A stretch of DNA of 58,362 nucleotides from Planktothrix paucivesiculata PCC 9631 (GTDB taxonomy: Bacteria; Cyanobacteriota; Cyanobacteriia; Cyanobacteriales; Microcoleaceae): contig NZ_LR735013.1 in NCBI RefSeq assembly GCF_900009265.2, positions 16,043 to 74,404 of the forward strand, written 5' to 3'. The stretch's first letter is position 1. Each line of letters opens with the position of its first letter. Shown one piece after another: positions 7,822 through 41,386 of this stretch. Below the pieces are notes generated by a model, which was not told where the DNA came from, did not search any database, and saw only the letters and a program-made list of their open reading frames with translations. Made by a program: the position numbers and the translations under genes.

Positions 7822-9789
7822 ATGTCACAACCTACGATAGAATCGATTCTGCAAGAAAATCGGTTGTTTCAACCTAATTCTGAGTTTTCCCAGAATGCCC
7901 ACATTAAAACCTTAGAGGAGTATAAACAACTCTATGAAAAAGCTAAAGCCAACCCCGAAGCGTTCTGGGCAGAACTAGCGGAAACAGAACTCCATTGGTT
8001 TCAAAAATGGGATCAGGTTTTAGACTGGCAAGCACCCTTTGCCAAATGGTTTGTCAATGGCAAAATTAATATTTCCTATAATTGTTTAGATCGGCATTTA
8101 ACCACTTGGCGGAAAAATAAAGCCGCCTTAATTTGGGAAGGAGAACCGGGCGATACCCGAACTTTAACTTACTTCCAACTGCATCGAGAAGTCTGTCAAA
8201 TGGCGAACGTTCTCAAACAGTTAGGAGTGCAAAAAGGCGATCGGATTGGCATCTATATGCCCATGATACCCGAAGCCGCCATTGCCATGTTAGCCTGTGC
8301 CCGCATTGGTGCGCCCCATACCGTTGTTTTTGGCGGGTTTAGTGGAGAAGCACTCAAAGATCGCTTAGTCGATGCGGAAGCCAAATTAGTGATTACCGCC
8401 GATGGGGGCTGGCGCAAAGATGCCATTGTTCCCCTAAAAGAACAGGTGGATAGGGCCATTGAAGCGGGGGCGACCTGCGTTGATAACGTTTTAGTGGTAC
8501 AAAGAACTAACCAAAAAATTAATATGGAACCGGGACGGGATCATTGGTGGCATGATCTCAGACAGGGGGTTTCCGCCGACTGTCCCGCCGAACCGATGGA
8601 TAGTGAGGATATGCTGTTCATCTTGTATACCAGTGGAACAACGGGCAAACCCAAGGGCGTTGTCCACACCACGGGCGGGTATAACCTCTACACCCACATT
8701 ACGAATAAATGGGCTTTTGACTTACAGGATACCGATGTCTATTGGTGTACGGCCGATGTCGGTTGGATTACTGGACACAGTTATATTGTCTATGGGCCCT
8801 TATCCAATGGGGCGACAACCTTAATGTATGAAGGAGCGCCGCGTACTTCTAACCCGGGTTGTTTCTGGGATGTGGTGGAAAAATACGGGGTGACGATATT
8901 CTATACCGCACCCACCGCGATTCGGTCATTTATGAAAATGGGGGAACATCATCCCAAGTCCCGTAATTTATCCTCTCTACGGCTCTTAGGAACCGTGGGA
9001 GAACCCATTAACCCAGAAGCTTGGATGTGGTATCAACGAGTTATTGGAAACGGTCAATGCCCGATTGTCGATACCTGGTGGCAAACGGAAACGGGCGGGT
9101 TCATGATTACCCCCTTACCCGGGGCGACTCCCACCAAACCCGGTTCGGCTACCTTACCCTTCCCGGGGATTTTAGCGGATGTGGTGGACACCGAAGGAAA
9201 TCCCGTAACCGATGATAGTGGGGGCTATTTGGTGGTGCGGTATCCCTGGCCGGGAATGATGCGGACGATATATGGTGATCCTGACCGCTTCCGTCGGACA
9301 TATTGGGAATATTTGAAACCAAAAGACGGTATTCCCCTCTATTTTGCCGGGGATGGAGCCCATCAAGACCGGGATGGCTATTTCTGGGTTATGGGTCGGG
9401 TGGATGACGTGATCAATGTGTCGGGACATCGTTTAGGGACAATGGAAATTGAGTCGGCGTTAGTGTCCCATCCGGCGGTGGCTGAGGCGGCGGTGGTAGG
9501 TAAACCCGATGAGATTAAGGGGGAGGAGATTGTGGCTTTTGTCACCTTGGAGGAAGGCAAGGAAGCCTCGGAGGAGTTGGCTAAGGAATTGAAAAAGCAC
9601 GTTGTCGGTGAAATTGGGGCTTTAGCCCGTCCCGGGGAAATTCGGTTTACGGATGATTTACCCAAAACCCGCTCTGGGAAGATTATGCGGCGGTTATTGC
9701 GATCGCTGGCTGCGGGTCAGGAAATTACCGGAGATACCTCTACCTTACAGGATCGGAGTGTATTAGAAAAATTACGGGGCGGTGCGTAA
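7822..9789 (+). CDS. acsA: Acetyl-CoA synthetase (AMP-forming)
   Basis: This enzyme activates acetate with ATP and CoA to acetyl-CoA in the cytoplasm. The 655-residue length is standard. Visible signatures are the N-terminal [17 protein letters not shown] block, the AMP-binding P-loop [15 protein letters not shown], the TWWQTETGG motif that binds the adenylate, [16 protein letters not shown] at the domain hinge, and the C-terminal [10 protein letters not shown] with Lys620. That lysine is the site which acetylation switches off in other Acs enzymes. The gene is monocistronic: the kinase upstream is divergent, and an inverted repeat plus a terminator-like hairpin follow. No gcn5-type acetylase or CobB deacetylase gene is adjacent. 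Confidence 0.97.
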
Positions 9790-9799
9790 TTATTTGTAG

Positions 9800-9853
9800 G
9801 GGCGGGTTCATCGAGATTTAGGTGATTAACAACACATATAAAAGAACCCGCCC
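9800..9853. repeat. Interspersed inverted repeat (GGGCGGGTTC ... GAACCCGCCC)
   Basis: Ten-base arms at 9800-9809 and 9844-9853 are perfectly complementary across a 34-base loop, and the complementarity continues imperfectly outward. A related GGGCGGGT/ACCCGCCC pair lies after clpX (39645-39689), which suggests a small dispersed repeat family. Confidence 0.7.
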
Positions 9854-9884
9854 GTACCAGTTATCAGTGTTAATTTTGTGATCT

Positions 9885-9910
9885 TCCCTGATAAACCAGG
9901 GATTTTTTTT
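9885..9910 (+). terminator. Intrinsic terminator or attenuator before the kinase array
   Basis: The stem TCCCTG/CAGGGA has a six-base loop and is followed directly by eight T. It ends only 18 bp before the ATG of the first array kinase. It may simply end acsA transcripts, or act as a leader attenuator for the array. Confidence 0.75.
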
Positions 9911-9928
9911 AATATTTAAAATTTATCA

Positions 9929-12409
9929 ATGAAATTAAGGCAAAAAATTCGGCGATCGCTATCCAGAAACTATAAGTTTCAACTCATCACATTTACTGTC
10001 ATTTATATTGCAGGGATGAGTCTAGCAATAAAACTTCAGTTAATAGATCCTCTTGCTCTAGCTGTCTGGCCACCTGCCGGAATCGCCCTAGCACTAATGT
10101 TATTATTTGGGATTAGGGTTTGGCCCGGTATAGTCATTAGTTTTATCTTATTAAACATCATTTTTTTTTCAGATGAGTTTGATTTTACTACATCAATTAT
10201 GCCTGCAATTGGTGAAATATTACAAACTATATTTGCAGTCAAATGTTTAAGTTATTTTAAGTTTGATCGCCGTTTAAATCGTTTAAGTGATGTCTTTAAG
10301 TTGATATTTTGGGGGGCGATAATTTCTACTCAAATTAAAACAATTTTGCAAGTCTCAACTATTTGTTTATTTAAAGAAGGGATGTGGCGTGATTTTGTTT
10401 GTGTATCTCCTTTAGGAGATTGGAGTAATTTTATTAATCTTTTTTGGAATTGGTGGCTAGGAAATGTCATGGGAATATTAATTTTTACTCCCTTAATTTT
10501 ATTGTTATATCCAAATAAGTTGCTACCCGATCAGCAAATTTTATCCGAACCAGAATTACTGAGAAAAAGGGTAAAATCTTTGCTTCTGTTGAGTATAATT
10601 ACCATTGTTAGTTCTCTAATCTTTTTTCAAAAAATAGATAAGCATCTTGCCAATTATCCCATAGAATATTTGCCTTTACCTTTTATTATTTGGGCAACTT
10701 TAAAATTTGATCAAAGAATCTCGATTATCGCTACATTGTTAGTATCAATGATCTCGATTTTATCAAATTTTTATGATGGTGGCCCATTTATAGCAAGAAC
10801 AAGTAATATCAGCGAGGCAACTCTATTATTACAAACATTTATGGCTGTAACAACTATTACTAATCTAGTATTATTAGCTACAGTTAGTGAACGGATACAA
10901 GCAGAAAAGCAGTTACAAAAATTAAATCAAGAGTTAGAAAATCGTGTAAAGGAACGCACAGCAGAGTTAGCAATTGCTAAGGAAAAAGCCGAGGTAGCAA
11001 ATCAGGCTAAAAGTACATTTATTGCTAATATGAGTCATGAATTGCGGAGTCCATTAAACGCAGTTATTGGTTTTTCGCAGTTAATGTTACGCACAAAAGA
11101 TCTACCTTCTGAACAGTACGAAAATGCTGGTATTATTCATCGTAGTGGGGAATATTTATTAACTTTAATTAATAATGTTTTAGATTTTTCTAAAATTGAA
11201 GCTCAGAAAACTACTCTGAATCAAAAAGATTTTGATCTATATCAATTGTTAGATGATTTGGAAGATATGTTACATTTAAGAGCGTTTAATGCGGGATTAG
11301 AATTGATTTTTGTCCGTGGAGAAAATCTACCTCGTTATCTTTATGCTGATGGAGTAAAACTACGTCAAGTTTTATTAAATTTATTAGGCAACGCGATTAA
11401 ATTTACATCTCAAGGTGAAGTGATTGTAAGGGTTAATAGCCAGGAAAATAAAGAGAACCAAAATCAGACTTTAAATTTTCAAATTGGCGACACAGGAAAA
11501 GGAATTTCTCCAGCAGAATTAACTCAATTATTCGAGGCATTTTCTCAAACCGAATCAGGACGAGAATCCCAAGAAGGAACAGGATTAGGATTAGTAATTA
11601 GTCGTCAATTTGTGCAGTTAATGGGGGGAGATATTACGGTAGAGAGTGAATTAGGAAAAGGGACAACTTTTCAATTTTCGATTCCAGTACAATTAGGTAA
11701 AGAATTAACTAAAATTGAACAAATTAATTCCCAACGGGTGTTAGCACTAGCACCCGAACAAGCGACTTACAAAATCTTGACGGTAGATGATAAAGCGATT
11801 AATTGCCAATTATTAACAAAATTACTTTCCCCTTTAGGATTTGAGGTTAAACAAGCCAGTAATGGACAGGAAGCTATTAATATTTGGCAAGAATGGCAAC
11901 CTCATTTAATATTTATGGATATGAGAATGCCTGTAATGGATGGTTATGAAGCTACTAAATATATTAAGTCAACTACTCAAGGTAATGCTACCGCGATTAT
12001 TGCTTTAACTGCCAGTGTTTTAGAAGAAGAAAAAGCGATTACTTTATCAGCAGGATGTGATGATTTTATGAGAAAACCCTTTAAAGAATCTACAATTTTT
12101 GAAATCTTAACAAAGCATTTAGGAGTCAAATATATTTATGAAAATATGACAGATGGGAATAGTCAAATAGGAGGGAAAATTAATGAATTACCCCGACTAA
12201 CTACAGAACAATTCCAAGTCATGCCCCAGAAATGGGTGTTCAGATTATATCAAGCAGTTCTCGAAGCAGATGAGCAGCAAATCATGAAATTAATCCCAGA
12301 AATTCCTGAAACCGAATCTTGTTTGGCTAAAAGTTTGACTAAACTGGTGCGTCAATTTCAATTTGAGCAAATTATTGATTTAATCGAACCTTTAACAATG
12401 GACAATTGA
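9929..12409 (+). CDS. Hybrid histidine kinase A: MASE1-HisKA-HATPase-REC
   Basis: The first of four tandem hybrid kinases, 826 residues. The N-terminus (about 15-320) is a multi-helix membrane sensor with the [18 protein letters not shown] block typical of MASE1. A coiled coil (about 322-360) leads into HisKA with phospho-acceptor His370 in MSHELRSP. HATPase_c follows, with N box [11 protein letters not shown]1 DTGKGIS and G2 GTGLGL. A receiver domain starts at about 614, with Asp664 in FMDMRMP, Thr694 and Lys716. The last 70 residues are a helical tail shared by all four kinases; it has no obvious HPt histidine. From the coiled coil onward the DNA is homologous to the other three genes and in part identical. 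No output domain is fused. The ATG has no good ribosome binding site. Confidence 0.95.
11777..12163 (+). repeat. 387-bp receiver segment, identical in four copies (copy A)
   Basis: This block, inside kinase A, recurs without a visible mismatch at 14637-15023, 17497-17883 and 20291-20677 in kinases B, C and D. It covers most of the receiver domain, including the phosphorylated Asp codon. Identity even at third codon positions shows recent duplication or gene conversion. Comparison was by eye. Confidence 0.9.
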
Positions 12410-12455
12410 CAAGCGATAATTGATAATTTTTATAAATAAAATTCCTGATTACTTA

Positions 12456-15269
12456 ATGATGACTAGCGATCGCGCCGATAAAACCCCAAAAACTCGACAA
12501 ATTCCCCTAAGATTACTGCTAATTGTCCCCTTTGTCTTGCAAATTGTGGGAGCAGTAGGATTAGTAGGTTTTCTTTCCTATCGCAGTGGACAAGAAGCGG
12601 TAGAAGATATGGCAATATCTTTGATGTCAGAAATAGGCGATCGCATTGAACAAAGCTTAAACAGCTATCTCAATGCACCGGAACAAGTTGCTCAAACTAA
12701 TGCCTCCCTCATCCGTCAAGGAATTTTAGATTACCAAAATTTACCCGCCCTGCAAACACACTTTGCCCAGCAAATGCAAATTTTTCCTAGTGTGAGTATG
12801 GTGAAAATTGCTAACGAAAAAAAAGACTATATATCAGTTTCACGAGACCTATCATCTGATCAGCTTATTGTGAGGATTATAAATACTTCAGAAAGCAATA
12901 ATCACTATCGTTACCGAGTAGATATAACAGGTAAAACTCATAAGTTACTGGACATTAGGACTGACTATAATCCTCATAATGACCCTCCTGGGAAGCCTTG
13001 GTATAGTGAGGCAAGGGAAGCCAAGATCGGAACTTGGGGCATTTTTGTCAATTTATCACAGGGAAAAAATCGCCCGCTTCTGTCTGCAACTTATCATTTG
13101 CCATTTCAAGATGCACAGGGACAATTTCAAGGGGTACTTGGTTCTAATCTATATCTACCTCTGTTTGGAGACTTTCTCCAAGGTCTAAAAATTGGGAACA
13201 CAGGGCAAGCATTTTTGATCGATCAACAAGGACAAATGATTGCTAATTCTGTTAATGAAGTACCATTTATAGCTACCGCGAAAAGTGAGTTATCTCAAAA
13301 TGTTGATGCTAATTCACGACGCTTAAAAGCAACCGCTAGTACAAATAAACTCATTCGATTAACCTCCCAATATTTAACAGATCACTTTAAACTACAAGAT
13401 ATTCAAAAAATTCAAAAATTTAATTTATCAGTGGATGGTCAGAAATATTTTGTGCAGGTTCTTCCTGTGAACAAACAAAATTTAAACTGGCTAACAGTTA
13501 TTGTTATTCCTGAATCTGACTTCATGGAACATATTCAGGAAAATGCCCATTTAACAATTGTCTTGTGTGGTCTAACTCTTGTTGTTGCCACAATAATTGG
13601 TATTCTTACTGCTCGATGGATTACTAAACCAATTTTACAATTAAGTCAAGTAAGTCAGGCTTTAGCATTAGGTGAATGGCAAAAGTCTGATCAAAAAAAT
13701 GATTTAATAAGAACTAAAAATATTACAGAAATATCAACTCTTGCCCATTCATTTAATATTATGGCAAGTCAGTTACAAGAATCTTTTGAAACTTTAGAAA
13801 ATCGAGTAGAAGAACGCACAGCAGAGTTAGTTATTGCTAAGGAAAAAGCAGAAGTTGCTAATCAGGCTAAAAGTAGCTTTATTGCCAATATGAGCCATGA
13901 ATTACGGAGTCCATTAAACGCAGTTATTGGTTTTTCGCAGTTAATGTTACGCGCAAAAAATCTACCTTCTGAACAATACGAAAATGCGGGAATTATTCAA
14001 CGAAGTGGGGAATATTTATTGACTTTAATTAATAATGTTCTCGATTTTGCCAAAATTGAAGCCCAAAAAACTACTTTAAATCCAAAAGATTTTGACTTAT
14101 ATCAATTATTAGATGATTTAGAGGATATGTTACATTTAATAGCCTTTAATGCTGGATTAGAATTAATCTTTGATCGGGGTGAAAATTTACCGCGTTATAT
14201 TCATACAGATGGGGTAAAATTACGTCAGGTTCTACTAAATTTATTGGGTAATGCGATTAAATTCACCCATCAAGGTGAAGTGGTTTTGAGTGTGAACTCA
14301 ACAGCCGATGAAATAGATGAAAAATATAGTTTAAATTTTAGTATTCTTGACACTGGTGTGGGAATTTCATCTGAAGAATTAACTAAATTATTTGAGGCAT
14401 TTTCTCAAACCGAATCAGGACGAGAAGCCCAAGAAGGAACAGGATTAGGATTAGTAATTAGTCGTCAATTTGTGCAGTTAATGGGGGGAGATATTACGGT
14501 AGAGAGTGAATTAGGAAAAGGGACAACTTTTCAATTTTCGATTCCAGTACAATTAGGTAAAGAATTAACTAAAATTGAACAAATTAATTCCCAACGGGTG
14601 TTAGCACTAGCACCCGAACAAGCGACTTACAAAATCTTGACGGTAGATGATAAAGCGATTAATTGCCAATTATTAACAAAATTACTTTCCCCTTTAGGAT
14701 TTGAGGTTAAACAAGCCAGTAATGGACAGGAAGCTATTAATATTTGGCAAGAATGGCAACCTCATTTAATATTTATGGATATGAGAATGCCTGTAATGGA
14801 TGGTTATGAAGCTACTAAATATATTAAGTCAACTACTCAAGGTAATGCTACCGCGATTATTGCTTTAACTGCCAGTGTTTTAGAAGAAGAAAAAGCGATT
14901 ACTTTATCAGCAGGATGTGATGATTTTATGAGAAAACCCTTTAAAGAATCTACAATTTTTGAAATCTTAACAAAGCATTTAGGAGTCAAATATATTTATG
15001 AAAATATGACAGATGGGAATAGTAAAATAGGAGAAACAATTCATGAATTACCCCAACTAACTACAGAACAATTTCAAATCATGCCCCAAGCATGGCTGCT
15101 CAGATTATATCAAGCAGTTCTCGAAGCAGATGAGCAGCAAATCGTGAGATTAATCTCAGAAATTCCCGAAACCGAAGCTGCTTTCCCTAAAAGTTTGACT
15201 AAACTGGTGCGTCAATTTCAATTTGAGCAAATTATTGATTTAATCGAACCTTTAACAATGGACAATTGA
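12456..15269 (+). CDS. Hybrid histidine kinase B: dCache-HAMP-HisKA-HATPase-REC
   Basis: The second array kinase, 937 residues from the ATG at 12456. The frame is open from a TTG at 12420, but those 12 extra codons lie in a leader repeated before kinases C and D, so ATG is preferred. Order: transmembrane helix (19-42), periplasmic double Cache domain (about 45-360, with [12 protein letters not shown] and [11 protein letters not shown]), second helix (365-385), HAMP, coiled coil, HisKA with His481, HATPase_c (DTGVGIS, GTGLGL), and a receiver with Asp775. Cache domains commonly bind small metabolites. The HATPase segment before DTGVGIS differs from A, C and D, whereas the following segment is identical to A. 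It starts 46 bp after A, so A-D are probably one operon. Confidence 0.95.
14637..15023 (+). repeat. 387-bp receiver segment, copy B
   Basis: Identical to the block in kinase A, offset by exactly 2860 bp. The flanking sequence upstream is also identical to A but differs from C and D. Confidence 0.9.
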
Positions 15270-15315
15270 CAAGCGATAATTGATAATTTTTATAAATAAA
15301 ATTCCTGATTACTTA

Positions 15316-18129
15316 ATGATGACTAGCGATCGCGCCGATAAAACCCCAAAAACTCGACAAATTCCCCTAAGATTACTGCTAATTGTCCCTTTTGTCCTGC
15401 AAATTGTGGGCGCTGTGGGATTAGTCGGTTATCTTTCCTATCGCAGTGGACAAGAAGCAGTGGAAGATATGGCAACATCTTTGATGTCAGAAATCGGCGA
15501 TCGCATTGAACAAAACTTAAACAGCTATCTCAAAGCACCCGAACAACTTACTCAAACTAATGCCTCCCTCATCCGTCAAGGAATTTTAGATTACCAAAAT
15601 TTACCAGTTCTGCAAACACACTTTGCCCAGCAATTACAAATTTTTCCTAGTGTCAGTAATGCGTTTATTTCTAACGAAAGAAAAGATTTTATATCAGTTT
15701 CACGATCTGCATCTGATCAGCTTACCGTTAGGATTTTAGATACTTCAAAAAGTAAAAATTTCTATCGTTACCTAGCAGATATCACAGGTAAAACTCATGA
15801 GTTACTGGATATTAGGACTGACTATAATCCCCATAATGACCCTCCTGGGGGGAAGCCTTGGTATCGTGCTGCAAAGGAAGCGAAGACGGGAAATTGGAAT
15901 ATTGTGGTCAGCTTAGCACGGGGAAAAGATCACCCACTTCTGCTTTCAGCTTATTATTTGCCATTTAAAGATGTACAGGGAAAATTTCAAGGGGTACTTG
16001 TTTCTGGTCTATATTTAACTCAGTTTGGAGACTTTCTTCAAGGTCTAAAATTTGGGGATACAGGGCAAGCATTTTTAATAGATCAACAAGGAAAAATGAT
16101 TGCTAATTCTATTAATGAAGTACCATTTATAACTACCGCTAAAAGTAAATTATCTCAAAATGTTAATGCTAGTTCCCGCCGCTTAAAAGCAACAGCTAGT
16201 AAAAATAAAATCACTCGCTTAACCTCCCAATATTTAACAGATAACTTTCAACTAGAAAGTATTCAAAATATTCAAAAACTTAATTTGTCATTGGATGGTC
16301 AGAAATATTTTGTGCAGGTTCTTCCAGTCAGCAAACAGAATTTAAACTGGTTAACAGTTATTGTTATTCCTGAATCTGACTTCATGGAACATATCCAGGA
16401 AAATGCCCATTTAACAATTGTCTTGTGTGGCCTAACTCTTATTGTTGCCACAATAATTGGTATTCTCACTGCACGATGGATTACTAAACCAATTTTACGA
16501 TTAAGTCAAGCAAGTCAGGCTTTAGCATTAGGAGAATGGCAAAAGTCTGATCAAGAAAATGATTTAATAAGAACTAAAAATATTACAGAGATATCAACTC
16601 TTGCCAATTCATTTAATAGTATGGCAATTCAGTTACAAACATCTTTTGAAACTTTAGAAAATCGAGTAGAAGAACGCACCGCAGAATTAGTTATTGCTAA
16701 GGAAAAAGCAGAAGTAGCAAATCAGGCAAAAAGTACATTTATTGCGAATATGAGCCATGAATTGCGGAGTCCATTAAATGCAATTATTGGTTTTTCCCAA
16801 TTAATGTTACGCACCAAAAATTTACCTTCTGAACAATACGAAAATGCGGGAATTATTCAACGAAGTGGGGAATATTTATTAACTTTAATTAATAATGTTT
16901 TAGATTTTTCTAAAATTGAAGCTCAAAAAACTACTCTGAATCAAAAGGATTTTGACCTCTATCAATTGTTAGATGATTTGGAAGATATGTTACATTTAAG
17001 GGCGTTTAATGGCGGATTAGAATTAATATTTGATCGGGGTGAAAATTTACCGCGTTATATTTATGGTGACGGGATAAAATTACGTCAAGTTTTATTAAAT
17101 TTATTAGGCAACGCGATTAAATTTACATCTCAAGGTGAAGTGATTTTAAGGGTTAATAGCCAGGAAAATAAAGAGAACCAAAATCAGACTTTAAATTTTC
17201 AAATTAGCGACACAGGTAAAGGAATTTCTCAAGCAGAATTAACTAAATTATTCGAGGCATTTTCCCAAACCGAATCAGGACGAGAATCCCAAGAAGGAAC
17301 GGGATTAGGATTAGCGATTAGTCGTCAATTTGTGCAGTTAATGGGAGGAGATATTACGGTAGAGAGTGAATTAGGGAAAGGTACAACTTTTCAATTTTCG
17401 ATTGTGGTACAATTAGGTCAAGAATTAACTAAAATTGAACAAATTAATTCCCAATGGGTATTAGCACTAGCACCCGATCAACCGACTTACAAAATTTTGA
17501 CGGTAGATGATAAAGCGATTAATTGCCAATTATTAACAAAATTACTTTCCCCTTTAGGATTTGAGGTTAAACAAGCCAGTAATGGACAGGAAGCTATTAA
17601 TATTTGGCAAGAATGGCAACCTCATTTAATATTTATGGATATGAGAATGCCTGTAATGGATGGTTATGAAGCTACTAAATATATTAAGTCAACTACTCAA
17701 GGTAATGCTACCGCGATTATTGCTTTAACTGCCAGTGTTTTAGAAGAAGAAAAAGCGATTACTTTATCAGCAGGATGTGATGATTTTATGAGAAAACCCT
17801 TTAAAGAATCTACAATTTTTGAAATCTTAACAAAGCATTTAGGAGTCAAATATATTTATGAAAATATGACAGATGGGAATAGTAAAATAGGAGAAACAAT
17901 TCATGAATTACCCCAACTAACTACAGAACAATTCCAAATAATGCCCCAAGCATGGCTGCTCAGATTATATCAAGCAGTTCTCGAAGCAGATGAGCAGCAA
18001 ATCATGAGATTAATCTCAGAAATTCCTGAAACCGAAGCTGCTTTAGCTAAAATCTTGACTAAACTGGTGCGTCAATATCAATTTGAACAAATTATTGATT
18101 TAATCGAACCTTTAATAATGGACAATTGA
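15316..18129 (+). CDS. Hybrid histidine kinase C: dCache-HAMP-HisKA-HATPase-REC
   Basis: The third array kinase, also 937 residues, placed exactly 2860 bp after B at the ATG, the receiver and the stop. The domain order matches B, with His481 and receiver Asp775. The Cache domain is clearly paralogous to B but diverged at many positions, for example [14 protein letters not shown] here against [14 protein letters not shown] in B, so ligand preference may differ. In the ATPase domain it resembles A and D ([15 protein letters not shown]), and in the linker to the receiver it matches D ([20 protein letters not shown]). The first 100 bp or so after the ATG are nearly identical to B. The receiver DNA is identical to all copies. 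Confidence 0.95.
17497..17883 (+). repeat. 387-bp receiver segment, copy C
   Basis: Identical to the block in kinase B, again offset by 2860 bp. The upstream flank matches copy D rather than A and B. Confidence 0.9.
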
Positions 18130-18175
18130 CAAGCGATAATTGATAATTTTTATAAATAAAATTCCTGATTACTTA

Positions 18176-20926
18176 ATGATGACTAGCGATCGCACCTCAA
18201 AACAAAAAAAAACTCGACAAATCCCCCTGAGATTAGTATTAATAATCCCCTTTATTTTACAAATTGTGGGAGCAGTAGGATTAGTTGGTTATGTTTCACT
18301 ACGCAATGGACAAAAAGCGGTTAACGAAGTAGCAACTCAACTACGTCAACAAATTTCAGTACAGATAGATGGGGAAATAAAACAATATATTAATACGCCA
18401 CATATTCTCAATGAAATTAATGCCGCCTCTTTAGCCGAAGGTAAATTTGATATGGCGAAAGCCAGTAATGCTAGACAATTATTAATCCAAGTCAAAAAAT
18501 TTCCTTTTATTTATTCATTTTATTGTGGTAATTCTCAAGGACAGTATTTGGGTGTATCGAACCGTGACACAGCGTTATATCTGGCAGCTAGTAATCAGGA
18601 AACCAATTATCTTTTTCACCGATATAGAATAGATGATTGGGGTAATCGGAAAGAAATTAATAAAAAATTGCGAAAGTTTGATCCTCGTCAACGCCCTTGG
18701 TATCTTTCCGCCGTGAAGGCAGGTAAACCGATCTGGAGTGAACTATACCTAGATTTTGCAACGGGAGAGCCGACAATTACTGCTAGTGAACCTGTCTATG
18801 ACCAAAAAGGAAACTTGATCGGTGTTTGTGGTGATGATGTGATTTTTAGTAAAAATTTAAGGAATTTTTTAAGGAGTCTGACTATTGGTAAAACAGGACA
18901 GGCATTTGTGATGGATCGATCTGGTTTAATCATTTCTAGTTCGACTCAAGAACCATTAACTATGGGAAAAGATAGGGAGAAAACCTTAATTAAAGCATTG
19001 GCAAGCAGTAACTCTTTAATCCGTGAGACATCTCAATATTTGCAGCAGCATTTTGGTGACTTTACACATATTCAAAAATCAGAACAGTTAGATTTTAATT
19101 GGAAGGGTCAACGACAGTTTATACAGGTATTACCATTAAATGATCATAGAGGAATTAATTGGATTATTGTTGTGGTGATTCCAGAAGCCGATTTTATGGA
19201 ACAAATTAATGAGAATACTCATTCAACTCTGATTCTGAGTTTATTTGCTTTAATAATCGCTACAGGATTAGGAATTATTACCTCAAATTTAATTACTGCA
19301 CCAATACGCAGATTAAGTCAAGCTAGTAGTGCGCTCGCTGATGGTGAATTTAATCAGGTTGTCGAAATCAAAGGAGTTTCTGAGATCGAAACTCTAGCTG
19401 ATTCTTTTAATCAAATGGCAAAACAGTTACAAGAATCTTTTGAAACCTTAGAAAATCGAGTAGAAGAACGCACCGCAGAATTATCTATTGCTAAGGAAAA
19501 AGCAGAAGTTGCTAATCAAGCAAAAAGTACCTTCATTGCCAATATGAGCCATGAATTGCGGAGTCCATTAAACGCCATTATTGGTTTTTCTCAGTTAATG
19601 TTACGCACAAAAAATCTACCTTCTGAACAATATAAAAATGCCGGAATTATTCAACGAAGTGGTGATTATTTATTAAATTTAATTAATAATGTCTTAGATT
19701 TTGCCAAAATTGAAGCCCAAAAAACTACTTTAAATCAAAAAGATGTTGATCTAGATCAATTATTAGATGATTTGCAAGATATGCTTCATCTGATGGCGTT
19801 TAATGCCGGATTAGAATTAATCTTTGATCGGGGTGAAAATTTACCGCGTTATATTTATGCTGATGACGTAAAATTACGTCAGGTTTTACTGAATTTATTA
19901 GGCAACGCGATTAAATTCACATCTCAAGGTGAAGTGATTTTAAGGGTTAATAGCCAGGAAAATAAAGAGAACCAAAATCAGACTTTAAATTTTCAAATTA
20001 GCGACACAGGTAAAGGAATTTCTCAAGCAGAATTAACTAAATTATTCGAGGCATTTTCCCAAACCGAATCAGGACGAGAATCCCAAGAAGGAACGGGATT
20101 AGGATTAGCGATTAGTCGTCAATTTGTGCAGTTAATGGGAGGAGATATTACGGTAGAGAGTGAATTAGGGAAAGGTACAACTTTTCAATTTTCGATTGTG
20201 GTACAATTAGGTCAAGAATTAACTAAAATTGAACAAATTAATTCCCAATGGGTATTAGCACTAGCACCCGATCAACCGACTTACAAAATTTTGACGGTAG
20301 ATGATAAAGCGATTAATTGCCAATTATTAACAAAATTACTTTCCCCTTTAGGATTTGAGGTTAAACAAGCCAGTAATGGACAGGAAGCTATTAATATTTG
20401 GCAAGAATGGCAACCTCATTTAATATTTATGGATATGAGAATGCCTGTAATGGATGGTTATGAAGCTACTAAATATATTAAGTCAACTACTCAAGGTAAT
20501 GCTACCGCGATTATTGCTTTAACTGCCAGTGTTTTAGAAGAAGAAAAAGCGATTACTTTATCAGCAGGATGTGATGATTTTATGAGAAAACCCTTTAAAG
20601 AATCTACAATTTTTGAAATCTTAACAAAGCATTTAGGAGTCAAATATATTTATGAAAATATGACAGATGGGAATAGTAAAATAGGAGAAACAATTCATGA
20701 ATTACCCCAACTAACTACAGAACAATTTCAAATCATGCCCCAAGCATGGCTGCTCAGATTATATCAAGCAGTTCTCGAAGCAGATGAGCAGCAAATCGTG
20801 AGATTAATCTCAGAAATTCCCGAAACCGAAGCTGCTTTCCCTAAAAGTTTGACTAAACTGGTGCGTCAATTTCAATTTGAGCAAATTATTGATTTAATCG
20901 AACCTCTTGTTGAAGATTCTAATTAA
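18176..20926 (+). CDS. Hybrid histidine kinase D: dCache-HAMP-HisKA-HATPase-REC
   Basis: The fourth array kinase, 916 residues from the ATG at 18176. The leader and the first few codons match B and C, and then the sensor departs strongly. Its periplasmic Cache domain is more canonical: [12 protein letters not shown], followed by [19 protein letters not shown] and [17 protein letters not shown], coiled coil, HisKA (His459), HATPase_c and receiver (Asp753) follow. The ATPase-receiver DNA is almost identical to C, while the C-terminal tail ([12 protein letters not shown]) matches B, so the gene is a mosaic. It ends differently (LVEDSN) from A-C (MDN). A PH-domain gene follows after 125 bp. No DNA-binding regulator is encoded nearby. 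Confidence 0.95.
20291..20677 (+). repeat. 387-bp receiver segment, copy D
   Basis: Identical to the other three copies; the offset from C is 2794 bp because the D sensor is shorter. Confidence 0.9.
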
Positions 20927-21051
20927 TTAGATAGATAAGTATTTATACTGATCTATCGAAATTTATGTAGTACAGTCTGTTGCTCTTTTAAAGTGTGGAA
21001 TGTCGGATATAATTAAGTTAATGTTATTCATGCGATCGCAGAGGCAAATAT

Positions 21052-21663
21052 ATGTTCAAAAATATTGCGGCGGATGTTTTGGGTTTAAGTGATATTGGTG
21101 CTGTCATCCAACCCAAAGACTATGACAAAGTAGATACCGATGATTATATCATCCAGGAAGAAGGGGAAAAAATCTATTTTCTAATTAAGTCAAAAACCGA
21201 TGAATATTGCTTTACTAATCGCGCTTTGATTCATCTTGATGGCACTTCTGCTGTTAGCAAAAAACGCTTGCTACACCGTTTTAGTTACAATCATCATATC
21301 ATTAAAAATGTGAAGCTAGAAACAGCAGGAACTTTAGATATGGACATTGAAATCAAATTTACTATGGGTGAACATTCCTATTCCATTGATGTTGGTAAAG
21401 CCTTTATCGAAAAACTTAAAGACTTGTATAAAGCATTAATTACAATATCAGCCATTCAGCATGAAAATGCGATTTATTACGAATATGCTAAAACCAGCTT
21501 AAATACAGCAACAAACGCCATTAACCGTTCTACAACTGCCTCCGCTTTAGAAGAACAATTTAAAGCAATTAACCAGTATGCTTTTCATTGGCTCGATCAA
21601 GCTCATAAAACTTATGTTCGTAAAGACTTTGGCGATATTTTCGAGAAATTTATTAACAATTAA
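21052..21663 (+). CDS. PH-domain protein (YvbH-like)
   Basis: The 203-residue soluble protein matches my memory of bacterial PH-domain proteins with a YvbH-like C-terminal helical region. Residues from about 25 to 125 form alternating strands (EEGEKIYFLIKSKTDEYCFTN, then ALIHLDG and FSYNHHIIKNVKLET) ending in a helix (VGKAFIEKLKDLYKAL), as a PH fold requires. Residues from about 140 to 200 are helical. Family members are proposed to oligomerise; the cellular role is not known. It lies 125 bp after kinase D and just before cobK, with its own ATG directly after GGCAAATAT and no strong ribosome binding site. A functional tie to the kinases is only positional. Confidence 0.75.
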   Translation: MFKNIAADVLGLSDIGAVIQPKDYDKVDTDDYIIQEEGEKIYFLIKSKTDEYCFTNRALIHLDGTSAVSKKRLLHRFSYNHHIIKNVKLETAGTLDMDIEIKFTMGEHSYSIDVGKAFIEKLKDLYKALITISAIQHENAIYYEYAKTSLNTATNAINRSTTASALEEQFKAINQYAFHWLDQAHKTYVRKDFGDIFEKFINN

Positions 21664-21706
21664 AGTAAGATAGAAATAACTTTTTTCTGTGTTGCTTGCT
21701 ATACTT

Positions 21707-22459
21707 ATGAGTCATCAAAAAAGAGTCTTAATTTTAGGCGGAACGACCGAAGCGGTAGCAATAGCAACTCAAATTAATCAAATTCCGGGTGTGGAGGCGA
21801 TCGCTTCTTTAGCAGGTCGAACTCAGCAACCTGTGACTCAAACTAGCCAGGTTTCTTTTCGGATCGGAGGGTTTGGGGGAGTGGCTGGATTAGCAGATTA
21901 TCTAAGCCAAGAACACATTGATCTGTTAATTGATGCTACCCATCCTTTTGCCGCCCAAATTTCTTTTAATGCTGCTCAAGCCACCTCTAAATCTGGGATT
22001 CCCCGATTAATGCTAATTCGTCCCGCTTGGAAACCAGTATTAGGAGATCACTGGATTGAGGTAAACACAAATCAAGCCGCGGCGAAGGCCTTACCAGGGT
22101 TAGCTGAACGCATATTTCTTACCATTGGTCGGCAAGAACTCCCCGCTTATGCCCATATAAAAAATATCTGGTTTTTGATGCGGATGATTGACCCTCCTGA
22201 ACCCAATTTACCCATCCCCCCCGGACAGTTAATTTTGCAACGGGGGCCGTTTTCTTTGGAGTCAGAGCGATCGCTTTTACAAAAACATCAAATCGGGGCA
22301 ATTGTTAGTAAAAATAGTGGAGGTGATGCGACTTATGCCAAGATTATCGCCGCCCGGGAGTTAGGATTACCCATTGTCATGATACAACGTCCCCCGGTTC
22401 CTGAAGGAGAGACCGTTACGGATGTAGAAAGTGTTCTTTCCTGGGTGAAAAACCAATAA
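21707..22459 (+). CDS. cobK: Precorrin-6A reductase
   Basis: This enzyme reduces precorrin-6A to precorrin-6B with NADPH in corrin ring synthesis. From the ATG at 21707 it is 250 residues long, typical for CobK/CbiJ. It opens with the VLILGGTTEA nucleotide loop. It also shows LIDATHPFAAQIS, the TIGRQEL strand, MRMIDPPEP and the C-terminal SKNSGGDATYAKIIAARELGLPIVMI block. A GTG at 21689 would add six residues, but the ATG places the conserved strand at the usual distance from the start. It is convergent with the cbiET gene, 67 bp away, and sits apart from the riboswitch-led operon, so it may not share that control. Confidence 0.93.
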   Translation: MSHQKRVLILGGTTEAVAIATQINQIPGVEAIASLAGRTQQPVTQTSQVSFRIGGFGGVAGLADYLSQEHIDLLIDATHPFAAQISFNAAQATSKSGIPRLMLIRPAWKPVLGDHWIEVNTNQAAAKALPGLAERIFLTIGRQELPAYAHIKNIWFLMRMIDPPEPNLPIPPGQLILQRGPFSLESERSLLQKHQIGAIVSKNSGGDATYAKIIAARELGLPIVMIQRPPVPEGETVTDVESVLSWVKNQ

Positions 22460-39739: not shown

Positions 39740-41386
39740 ATGAGTATATTTCCTATGATCAACTCCTTAAATCCAGTGAGTGATGCAATTAATAGCTTGG
39801 GGTTGAATTTATATCATCAACTCAGCCAAGATAATAAAAATAAACCTAACAATCTATTTTTGTCCCCTTACTCTATTTTTATTCCGTTATTAATGGCATT
39901 AGAAGGAGCAAATGGGGAAACGGCTCAACAAATGAGAGCGGTTTTATGTTTGCCAGAAAATGTAAGTAATGCTGAGTCTTTAGATTCGCCTTGGTTAACA
40001 GAAAATGTTCATCCTATGGTTGCAGAATTAACTCGAAATTTAATCAACTTAGTTACAGAATCTTCTGAAAATAAACTAGCAATTAATAATCAAATTAAAG
40101 AATTAGAAGAAAATCTTAAACTGATTCAAAAACAATCCGACGATTATCGTCATTTAAGTTATGAAGCCGAGATGAATTATAGTAAACAACGTCAAATTAT
40201 TCATGAACAGTGCTACGAAAACTATAACCAAGTTAAAGCTATAACTGATCCTAAAATTAAACAAGAACAAGCAGAAATTGAGCAACATCTTAAAGAGATT
40301 GGTAAACAAGCACAAGAACTTTATAAGATCAGACTTCAAGAATTACAAAAGCAACCGAATGCCCAAACTTTAGAATATTATAGAAGTTATCAAGAGCACT
40401 TATGGCAAGAAGAACAATCAACTGCTGAACAATTAAATTTGCTTTATAAGCAAGGTATACCTGTAGAAATTGCGATCGCCAATAGTATTTGGCAAGAAAA
40501 AAAAGTGGATTTTAAACCAACTTTTTTAGAAACTTTAAATCAATTCTATGGTGAAGTTGTCCATCCTGTAGATTTTACACAATCCGAACAAGTTAGGCTA
40601 GAAATTAACCAGTGGATTGAAAATAATACTGGACAAAAAATCAAAGATTGCTTAAAACCTGAAGATATTAATCCTACTACTATCCTAGTTTTAATCAATG
40701 CGATTTATTTTCGAGGCAATTGGCTGCATGAATTTAATCCTCAAAATACCCATGACCAGGATTTTACTCAATTAGAGGGGACAAAAATAAAAATTCCCTT
40801 TATGAACATGAGAGAAGAAAAATTTAACTATGGTTGCTTTAATGTTGAGCAGGGTGAAAAAAGTAAATTTTTTCAAACAAGATTGGATGAACAGGAAAGA
40901 GTACCCCAGGTACAAATCATTGAGTTACCGTATCGGAATCAGCAATTCTCAATGGTGATTCTACTTCCTGCTGCTCATGATCAACTGCCCTTTTTGGAAT
41001 CCCAATTAAGTTATGAAAAACTGAATCAATGGCTAGCTCAACTTTCGCCTACTTCCTGTAATTTACTGATGCCAAAATTCAAAATTGAGACTAGATTTTC
41101 CTTAAAAAAATATTTATCCGATTTAGGAATGCCCCGGGCTTTTAACGCAAATGCTCAATTTCAAAAAATGTATGATGGTGAGATTCAGATTGATGAAGTT
41201 ATTCACCAAACCTTTTTAGAAGTGGATGAAGAAGGAACGAAAGCGGCGGCTGTTACTGCATTAATCTCCAGGTGCTTTTCTGTACCCGATTATGAGGATT
41301 TCTATGCAGATCAACCCTTTTTGTTTTTTATTCGCGATCGCAATACAGATCTAATTTTATTCTTAGGAAGATTTATGGGTTGTTGA
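39740..41386 (+). CDS. Serpin with a coiled-coil insertion
   Basis: The 548-residue protein is a serpin (serine/cysteine protease inhibitor) about 140 residues longer than the family norm. N-terminal helices (NLFLSPYSIFIPLLMALEGA, GETAQQM) and the later LVLINAIYFRGNW and QPFLFFIRD blocks are standard. The reactive-centre hinge EEGTKAAAVTA (497-507) keeps the small-residue pattern of inhibitory serpins. Counting from Gly499 as P15 puts P1 at Phe513 and P1' at Ser514, though the loop looks about two residues long. Residues from about 107 to 237 are a highly charged, Gln/Glu/Lys-rich helical stretch placed between helix D and strand 2A. It has no signal peptide, so it should be cytoplasmic. The target protease is unknown. 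Confidence 0.92.
   Translation: MSIFPMINSLNPVSDAINSLGLNLYHQLSQDNKNKPNNLFLSPYSIFIPLLMALEGANGETAQQMRAVLCLPENVSNAESLDSPWLTENVHPMVAELTRNLINLVTESSENKLAINNQIKELEENLKLIQKQSDDYRHLSYEAEMNYSKQRQIIHEQCYENYNQVKAITDPKIKQEQAEIEQHLKEIGKQAQELYKIRLQELQKQPNAQTLEYYRSYQEHLWQEEQSTAEQLNLLYKQGIPVEIAIANSIWQEKKVDFKPTFLETLNQFYGEVVHPVDFTQSEQVRLEINQWIENNTGQKIKDCLKPEDINPTTILVLINAIYFRGNWLHEFNPQNTHDQDFTQLEGTKIKIPFMNMREEKFNYGCFNVEQGEKSKFFQTRLDEQERVPQVQIIELPYRNQQFSMVILLPAAHDQLPFLESQLSYEKLNQWLAQLSPTSCNLLMPKFKIETRFSLKKYLSDLGMPRAFNANAQFQKMYDGEIQIDEVIHQTFLEVDEEGTKAAAVTALISRCFSVPDYEDFYADQPFLFFIRDRNTDLILFLGRFMGC

What the first reader, a model, noticed from the sequence alone, without database searches (positions are those of the whole stretch)
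9929..20926. Four hybrid kinases with swapped sensors on a shared, homogenised chassis
Four consecutive genes carry different or diverged input domains (MASE1, two related double Cache domains, one distant Cache domain) on nearly the same HisKA-HATPase-REC-tail body. The receiver is identical in protein and DNA over 387 bp. Such an array would route four signals into one phospho-output while the inputs diversify. This looks like an evolving sensor cassette system, not four independent kinases. Array function is inference.
Basis: partly seen in the sequence, partly recalled or inferred. Interest (0 to 1): 0.8.

Follow-up and report, generated by a model that had tools for sequence, protein, structure and literature searches.

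The report
Tandem kinases sharing one recombining body
Four neighbouring cyanobacterial sensor kinases carry different sensing heads on one shared signalling body; the gene block changes in number and heads between related species, and the shared receiver part is kept alike within the genome, so it looks like a natural mix-and-match receptor array caught while evolving.

Summary
Four consecutive hybrid histidine kinases (MASE1; two related dCache; one distant dCache) share a HisKA-HATPase-REC-tail body, with a 387-bp block over the receiver identical in all four. Synonymous divergence within the array is very uneven: HisKA 0.38, HATPase 0.24, receiver 0.009, tail 0.10, while these receivers differ by 0.31 from those of other species of the genus at the same place. 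In the eight congeners where that place could be read it holds 0, 1 or 2 kinases, intact or broken, with MASE1, dCache, 7TMR-DISM or an unrecognised HAMP-linked sensor, plus scars of collapsed copies. In 15 of 15 cross-species pairs with the same sensor (not independent) the sensor is less diverged than the background (13 with p < 0.05); the adjacent kinase core is so in only 2 of 15. Arrays of another genus (probably Okeania) partly repeat the pattern with unrelated sensors. Best reading: tandem kinase arrays evolving by birth-and-death, recombination at the sensor/HisKA junction, and concerted evolution of the receiver. That all four feed one output is plausible, not shown. Precedent: Campylobacter Tlp2/3/4 chemoreceptors. 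The exact receiver identity comes from a draft assembly and needs long reads.

The parts
9929..12409 (+). K1: MASE1 - HisKA - HATPase - REC - tail hybrid kinase
   Evidence: MASE1 E 4.4e-35
12420..15269 (+). K2: dCache - HAMP - HisKA - HATPase - REC - tail; likely true start ATG 12456
15280..18129 (+). K3: dCache (close to K2) - HAMP - HisKA - HATPase - REC - tail; likely true start ATG 15316
18140..20926 (+). K4: distant dCache - HAMP - HisKA - HATPase - REC - tail; likely true start ATG 18176; its last residues (EDSN) differ from K1-K3 and resemble single-copy genes of relatives
11777..12163 (+). 387-bp block over the receiver, identical in all four (copy in K1)
14637..15023 (+). 387-bp identical block (K2)
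17497..17883 (+). 387-bp identical block (K3)
20291..20677 (+). 387-bp identical block (K4)
17125..17933 (+). 809-bp block identical between K3 and K4 (copy in K4: 19919-20727)
14637..15251 (+). 615-bp block identical between K2 and K4 (copy in K4: 20291-20905)
12410..12455 (+). array junction before K2: spacer and leader, also at 15270-15315 and 18130-18175; a similar junction lies between the two kinases of G004
7822..9789 (+). acetate-CoA ligase gene that marks the syntenic place in relatives
21052..21663 (+). bacterial PH-domain/YvbH gene, downstream border

Best explanation
This is a tandem array of membrane-bound hybrid histidine kinases in a filamentous cyanobacterium, with the sensor at the 5' end of each gene and one common HisKA-HATPase-REC-tail body at the 3' end. 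The repeated body is a substrate for homologous recombination (inferred: unequal crossing-over and gene conversion by the general repair machinery). This has three results. Copies are gained and lost while surviving genes can stay full kinases (copy-number variation shown). New sensor/body combinations arise near the sensor-HisKA junction (shown as a divergence mismatch), and sensors have probably also moved between species (inferred). The receiver is kept alike within a genome by concerted evolution (shown for the window, partial elsewhere). Functionally, each kinase senses its own signal in the periplasm or membrane and phosphorylates its receiver and a common partner; because the DHp segment after the phospho-acceptor histidine and the receiver are nearly invariant within the array, all copies should couple to the same output (inference). 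In related arrays that partner is probably the REC-PAS-GGDEF diguanylate cyclase encoded just downstream (inference); the window's array has no such gene beside it and would have to use one elsewhere in the genome.
For: Mosaic divergence: pS within the array HisKA 0.383, HATPase 0.238, REC 0.009, tail 0.098, against 0.445, 0.326, 0.311 and 0.315 to 8 kinases of other species at the same place; REC ratio 0.03, codon bootstrap 0.00-0.10. REC pS between the two paralogous loci is nearly as high as that of HisKA (0.61-0.65 and 0.66-0.67), so receiver synonymous sites are not slow in themselves. REC tree (receiver plus 22 codons before it): K1-K4 one clade, 100/98; HisKA tree: K1-K4 a clade in 0% of 200 bootstrap trees. 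Locus variation in congeners and remnants of collapsed copies. Sensor pS is below the pooled background in 15 of 15 cross-species same-sensor pairs, 13 with Fisher p < 0.05, e.g. K1-G002 MASE1 0.171 (38/224) against 0.422 (1053/2497); sensor and adjacent HisKA-HATPase differ at p < 0.05 in 12 of 15. K2-G004_1 falls to 0.00-0.04 at the sensor end and rises to 0.73 in HisKA. G002 (MASE1) and G008 (dCache) share a body with pS 0.27, below their background of 0.35. Partial replication in another genus (probably Okeania): within arrays of kinases with mostly unrelated sensors REC pS averages 0.20 (8 pairs, 0.04-0.31) and HisKA 0.41, while same-sensor orthologues of different genomes average REC 0.22 and HisKA 0.27 (4 pairs); the extreme pair has REC 0.04 and HisKA 0.47. 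Catalytic motifs look intact in all four (read by eye) and the H-box region is almost invariant.
Against: The AU test does not reject a single origin of the four HisKA segments at 5% (p = 0.077). Recent amplification of one body followed by capture of other sensor-HisKA halves would give the same receiver pattern; the direction is not resolved. Receiver homogenisation is nearly complete only in the window: within-array REC pS is 0.26 in G004, 0.21 in G001 and 0.19-0.47 at the second locus of the genus. Sister species G2/G3 (background 0.115) and G6/G8 (0.182) have bodies that differ by 0.37 and 0.38, so there the whole kinase, not only the sensor, differs. The 15 pairs are not independent; 2 of 15 sensors are not significantly below background, and the kinase core is significantly below it in 2 of 15 as well (above in 6, no difference in 7). 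With the smaller control set one of the 10 pairs then tested (K2-G003) went the other way, 0.329 against 0.307. That sensors are low in every pair could also mean that their synonymous sites change slowly. The PH gene just downstream is also low (0.23 G000-G002, 0.21 G000-G003, 0.12 G000-G006), so exchange may reach beyond the kinases. No output partner is shown.
Confidence: 0.7

Rival explanations
1. Neutral by-product: the array is an ordinary lineage-specific expansion. Recombination tracts gather in the receiver only because it is the most conserved stretch of DNA; the receiver is not selected to be the same and the four kinases need not share an output.
For: Receiver protein sequence is conserved even between loci (pN about 0.11, against 0.23 for HATPase), so conversion would be easiest there. 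Strong homogenisation is seen in only some arrays. No output gene found beside the array.
Against: HisKA is nearly as conserved in protein (pN 0.05 within the array, 0.15 between loci) but stays at pS 0.38 within the array. A receiver-centred pattern recurs in part in another genus.
Confidence: 0.3
2. Differential loss only: an ancestral large array held all sensor types with fixed bodies, and each species kept different members; no sensor-body recombination.
For: Sister species with different sensors also differ in their bodies. Leader and tail remnants in G001, G002 and G009 show lost members.
Against: Sensors and bodies of one gene have different histories: K2-G004_1 sensor 0.137 against HisKA-HATPase 0.474, Fisher p 3e-15; 12 of 15 pairs differ at p < 0.05. 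K2 and K4, with very different sensors, are the only starred pair among the acs-locus kinases in the HisKA tree, 99/93.
Confidence: 0.1
3. Assembly artefact: near-identical repeats in a draft genome (184 contigs) were merged, making the receivers falsely identical.
For: The genome is a draft. Identical blocks of 387-809 bp may exceed the read length, which is unknown to me. Contigs of some relatives start or end inside this body (L047, L054, L057).
Against: Identical tracts are pair-specific and end at different places. Partial homogenisation (REC pS 0.04-0.26) occurs in other genomes. Copy-number variation is also seen in G001, a five-contig assembly.
Confidence: 0.08
4. A dedicated variation system (invertible cassettes, retroelement-directed diversification or silent sensor stores) drives sensor change within a population.
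For: Change of sensors between close species.
Against: No inverted repeats of 40 bp or more in 9000-22000. The divergence pattern is explained by ordinary homologous recombination. Silent cassettes and recombinases were not searched for.
Confidence: 0.03

Closest known systems
Campylobacter jejuni chemoreceptors Tlp2/Tlp3/Tlp4 (PMC9769880; passages read)
   Same: Paralogous receptors with different dCache_1 sensors (about 30% identity) on identical signalling domains; copy number and pseudogenes vary between strains.
   Different: Chemoreceptors, not kinases; the passages that I read describe variation among dCache sensors, whereas here unrelated sensor classes sit on one body.
Lineage-specific expansion and domain shuffling of histidine kinases (myxobacterial survey PMC4603909; passages read)
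   Same: Kinases arise by duplication and acquire new input domains.
   Different: That survey calls domain shuffling rare and thinks that apparent shuffling is probably loss followed by gain; here mismatched sensor and body histories inside a genus argue for direct recombination between kinase genes.
BarA/TorS/ArcB-type hybrid kinases (NCBIfam models)
   Same: The HisKA-HATPase-REC core scores best against models such as TorS and BarA.
   Different: These scores are far below the curated cut-offs; no HPt domain; the C-terminal tail has no Pfam family.
Tandem kinases of the same body followed by a REC-PAS-GGDEF regulator (second locus of this genus, L009, L058, L059, L060)
   Same: Same body, 2-3 kinases in a row, MASE1 and dCache sensors.
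   Different: The window's array has no such regulator beside it (nor has the second-locus array of G004, L045).

Membership tests
Hybrid histidine kinase | HisKA, HATPase_c and receiver domain in one protein | tested here: met
   4 of 4 proteins
Hybrid histidine kinase | Intact phospho-acceptor His, ATP-site and receiver Asp/Lys motifs (motifs recalled) | tested here: met
   sequence, read by eye, 4 of 4
Tripartite phosphorelay kinase (BarA/TorS/ArcB type) | C-terminal HPt domain | tested here: not met
   no PF01627 hit at E <= 0.001 in 4 of 4 proteins; TorS, BarA and ArcB model scores below cut-off
Concerted-evolution receptor set (Tlp2/3/4-like) | Divergent sensors on near-identical signalling parts | tested here: met
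   near-identity holds for the receiver, not for HisKA
Concerted-evolution receptor set (Tlp2/3/4-like) | MCP signalling domain | tested here: not met
   no MCP signalling family among hits
Array with one shared output | Adjacent or demonstrated common response regulator | tested here: inconclusive
   none outside the array among the 17 window proteins scanned with Pfam, of 46 ORFs, four of the 17 being the array itself; GGDEF regulator adjacent in some related arrays; phosphotransfer not testable here
Dedicated cassette/inversion system | Inverted repeats, recombinase or silent sensor cassettes | tested here: inconclusive
   no inverted repeats of 40 bp or more in 9000-22000; other features not tested

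The most novel reading that the evidence does not exclude
A natural plug-and-play receptor platform: in Oscillatoriales, sensor cassettes of unrelated classes (MASE1, dCache, 7TMR-DISM, solute-binding, beta-propeller) circulate between neighbouring genes and between species by homologous recombination anchored on the conserved kinase body (and, for dCache, a conserved first-transmembrane leader), while selection keeps one receiver sequence per genome so that every new sensor is at once wired to the same output.
Probability: 0.33. Interest if true: 0.78.

Novelty: new variant of a known kind. Interest (0 to 1): 0.6.

Why it matters
Sensor shuffling in two-component systems is usually inferred over deep time (recalled). 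Here congeneric species, a fixed syntenic place, scars of lost copies and sharp breakpoints at the sensor-HisKA junction make the process visible and testable. It would also give natural data on which sensor-kinase junctions work, of use for engineering chimeric kinases, and a case where wiring seems to be kept by concerted evolution of the receiver rather than by divergence of specificity residues.

Tried and rejected
Rejected: even divergence; a stable four-gene array; slow synonymous change of receivers as the cause of identity (REC pS between loci 0.61-0.65); an HPt in the tail. Considered and dropped: a simple in-place sensor swap between the sisters G2/G3 and G6/G8, because their bodies are about as different as paralogues. 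A stand-alone HPt as relay was looked for in the own genome: 11 HPt matches, all in open frames of 326 codons or more, so none is an obvious small relay protein. Ligand motifs of dCache domains were read about in passages of PMC10104139 but no ligand is claimed. In K2/K3 the middle of the sensor (K2 residues 121-250) has pN about equal to pS (0.16-0.17 against 0.16-0.21), with lower pN elsewhere: suggestive of diversification, untested against relaxed constraint. Literature: of ten full-text searches of the held library, eight bore on kinase evolution or gene conversion and two on dCache motifs (52) and Planktothrix kinases (53); none listed a paper whose title or abstract start describes receiver gene conversion or sensor exchange among tandem hybrid kinases. 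Most subscription journals are not held, so this is weak evidence of absence.
Full report
OBSERVATION. Four consecutive + strand genes lie between an acetate-CoA ligase gene and a bacterial PH-domain gene. All four encode HisKA, HATPase_c and a receiver. K1 has MASE1; K2 and K3 have a closely related dCache; K4 has a distant dCache; K2-K4 have HAMP. The protein alignment and 40-column synonymous differences show a sharp mosaic: sensor windows mostly 0.3-1.0 (K2/K3 0.07-0.26), HisKA windows 0.24-0.64, core receiver windows 0.00. The four share a 387-bp identical block over the receiver; shuffled columns never gave more than 92 in 2000 trials. Pair-specific identical tracts (596, 615 and 809 bp) end in different places, as expected of repeated recombination.

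CONCERTED EVOLUTION. Within the window's array pS is 0.383 (HisKA), 0.238 (HATPase), 0.009 (REC) and 0.098 (tail); to 8 kinases of other species at the same place it is 0.445, 0.326, 0.311 and 0.315. The REC ratio is 0.03 (bootstrap 0.00-0.10). Receivers of the two loci of the genus differ by 0.61-0.65, HisKA segments by 0.66-0.67, so the receiver is not slow at synonymous sites. In the REC tree the four window copies form a clade (100/98); in the HisKA tree they do so in 0% of bootstrap trees, though the AU test does not reject it (p 0.077). In other arrays of the genus the effect is weaker: within-array REC pS 0.26 (G004), 0.21 (G001) and 0.19-0.47 (second locus, 12 pairs).

RELATIVES. One search covered 59 genomes (own plus 58 relatives); all 59 matched somewhere, as expected for such domains. 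For the nine congeners the best-matching place was fetched and mapped. Seven have the acetate-CoA ligase gene beside it (G001, G002, G004, G006-G009); G003 has only the PH gene; G005 is a contig fragment and is not counted as read. G001: a MASE1 kinase with a frame break plus a 7TMR-DISM kinase that has lost part of its ATPase. G002: one MASE1 kinase, preceded by a leftover dCache-kinase leader. G003: one dCache kinase. G004: two dCache kinases. G006: a kinase with an unrecognised sensor plus HAMP (no Pfam hit to the sensor), followed by REC-PAS-PAS-GGDEF. G007: the same sensor type as G006. G008: one dCache kinase. G009: only a tail remnant. In G001 a dCache leader is followed by a kinase tail upstream of the MASE1 gene, which looks like the scar of a collapsed copy (by eye). 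The junction between tandem copies in the window resembles that in G004 (by eye), so tandem arrangement probably predates their split.

SENSOR EXCHANGE. All 15 cross-species pairs of intact genes with the same sensor at this place were tested against pooled control genes (6-10 genes a pair, of 14). Sensor pS is below the background in 15 of 15, with p < 0.05 in 13. Examples: K1-G002 0.171 against 0.422; K2-G004_1 0.137 against 0.271; G006-G007 0.158 against 0.349; weakest K2-G004_2 0.233 and K3-G004_2 0.238 against 0.271 (p 0.19, 0.25). The adjacent HisKA-HATPase part is significantly above background in 6 of 15, below in 2 (K3-G008, G006-G007) and no different in 7; it differs from the sensor at p < 0.05 in 12 of 15. 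The pairs share species and are not independent. In one search, an earlier test of 10 of these pairs with fewer controls, 9 were significantly below and K2-G003 was slightly above (0.329 against 0.307). The PH control next to the array is itself low (0.21-0.23). Sisters G002/G003 (background 0.115) carry different sensors while the distant G000/G002 share MASE1; sisters G006/G008 (0.182) differ while G006/G007 (0.349) share. Against a simple in-place swap: the bodies of G002/G003 and G006/G008 also differ (0.37, 0.38), so whole members were replaced there; but G002 (MASE1) and G008 (dCache) do share a body at pS 0.27, below their background of 0.35.

SECOND LOCUS AND SECOND GENUS. The same genome has a paralogous array on contig C100 (MASE1, dCache, MASE1; a substrate-binding-like gene between the first and second) followed by REC-PAS-GGDEF. 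Related loci in G002, G003, G004 and G007 hold 2-4 kinases; homologues of the GGDEF gene were found in G002, G003, G006 and G007, not beside the G004 array. Three genomes of another genus in the family (G014, G029, G032; the G014 contig has the same length, 148,932 bases, as the named Okeania SIO2B3 contig, so the name is an inference) have arrays with solute-binding (SBP_bac_3), 7TMR-DISM, propeller (Reg_prop, Y_Y_Y) and, in the last position, 7TMR-DISM (G014, and by similarity G029) or dCache (G032) sensors, on bodies about 64-90% alike in protein by aligned segment. Within these arrays REC pS is 0.04-0.31 (8 pairs, mean 0.20) and HisKA 0.27-0.50 (mean 0.41); same-sensor orthologues of different genomes have REC 0.15-0.25 (4 pairs, mean 0.22) and HisKA 0.17-0.34 (mean 0.27). 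So receivers of paralogues are on average as close as those of orthologues while HisKA segments are not, and one pair (propeller and 7TM kinases of G032) has REC 0.04 with HisKA 0.47 (means are mine from its table). Of 79 named loci fetched, 12 hold two or more same-strand receivers of at least 50% identity; some of these are genomes already described, stretches were at most about 22 kb, and the fetch kept only the best 80 of 588.

FUNCTION. Catalytic motifs look intact. The segment after the phospho-acceptor histidine is almost invariant within the array and similar in the second locus, and the receivers are the same, so a common partner is likely (inference; that this segment sets specificity is recalled). 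The tail has no Pfam family and no HPt was found in the four proteins. In some related arrays the adjacent REC-PAS-GGDEF gene suggests a c-di-GMP output; the window's array lacks it.

ORGANISM. The window lies in a 6.1-Mb, 184-contig draft genome. Contigs of two congeners have the same length as named records with the same match (G006: KTt_bin-1839; G007: CG2_30_40_61), both called Oscillatoriales. That the genus is Planktothrix is a recollection, not a result.

VERDICT. The finding is real and the evolutionary reading is largely right, with partial replication in a second genus. It is a new variant of a known kind: paralogous receptors with divergent sensors on a homogenised signalling part are known in Campylobacter chemoreceptors (PMC9769880, passages). 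The shared-output claim and the exact receiver identity (draft assembly) remain to be tested.

Noticed in passing
window 39740-41386: A serpin gene (Pfam Serpin E 3.4e-105) in a cyanobacterial genome, beside a ClpX-like gene and a GAF-PAS histidine kinase.
   Followed up: no
L041:2675-7197 and L048:1-3372: In G001 the acetate-CoA ligase gene beside the array is split after codon 39 by an insert with a 592-aa ORF that looks like a group II intron maturase (recalled resemblance); in G006 the ligase match starts at residue 33 with a similar-looking ORF just upstream.
   Followed up: no
window 9790-9928: Upstream of K1 lies a hairpin followed by a T-run about 25 bp before the start codon, and a GGGGCGGGTTC...GAACCCGCCC inverted repeat that is also present in L044, L048 and L049 but not in L041, L042, L050 or L051 at this place (by eye): a possible mobile repeat and a terminator- or attenuator-like leader.
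   Followed up: partly
window 12780-13169 (K2 residues 121-250) and K3 counterpart: Nonsynonymous and synonymous rates between K2 and K3 are about equal in the middle of the dCache domain and nonsynonymous is low elsewhere.
   Followed up: partly
L058:5562-7297 and L046:5625-7175: Second-locus kinases of G003 and a further kinase array of G004 are interrupted by ORFs that look like transposases (recalled resemblance).
   Followed up: no
L045:4826-5536: A kinase remnant made of a dCache N-terminus followed directly by a tail, another apparent collapse scar, at the second locus of G004.
   Followed up: partly
listing: The kinase tail also matches at about 40-47% in frames of roughly 1570-1600 codons in many genomes of one other genus of the family (g11); the proteins were not examined.
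   Followed up: no
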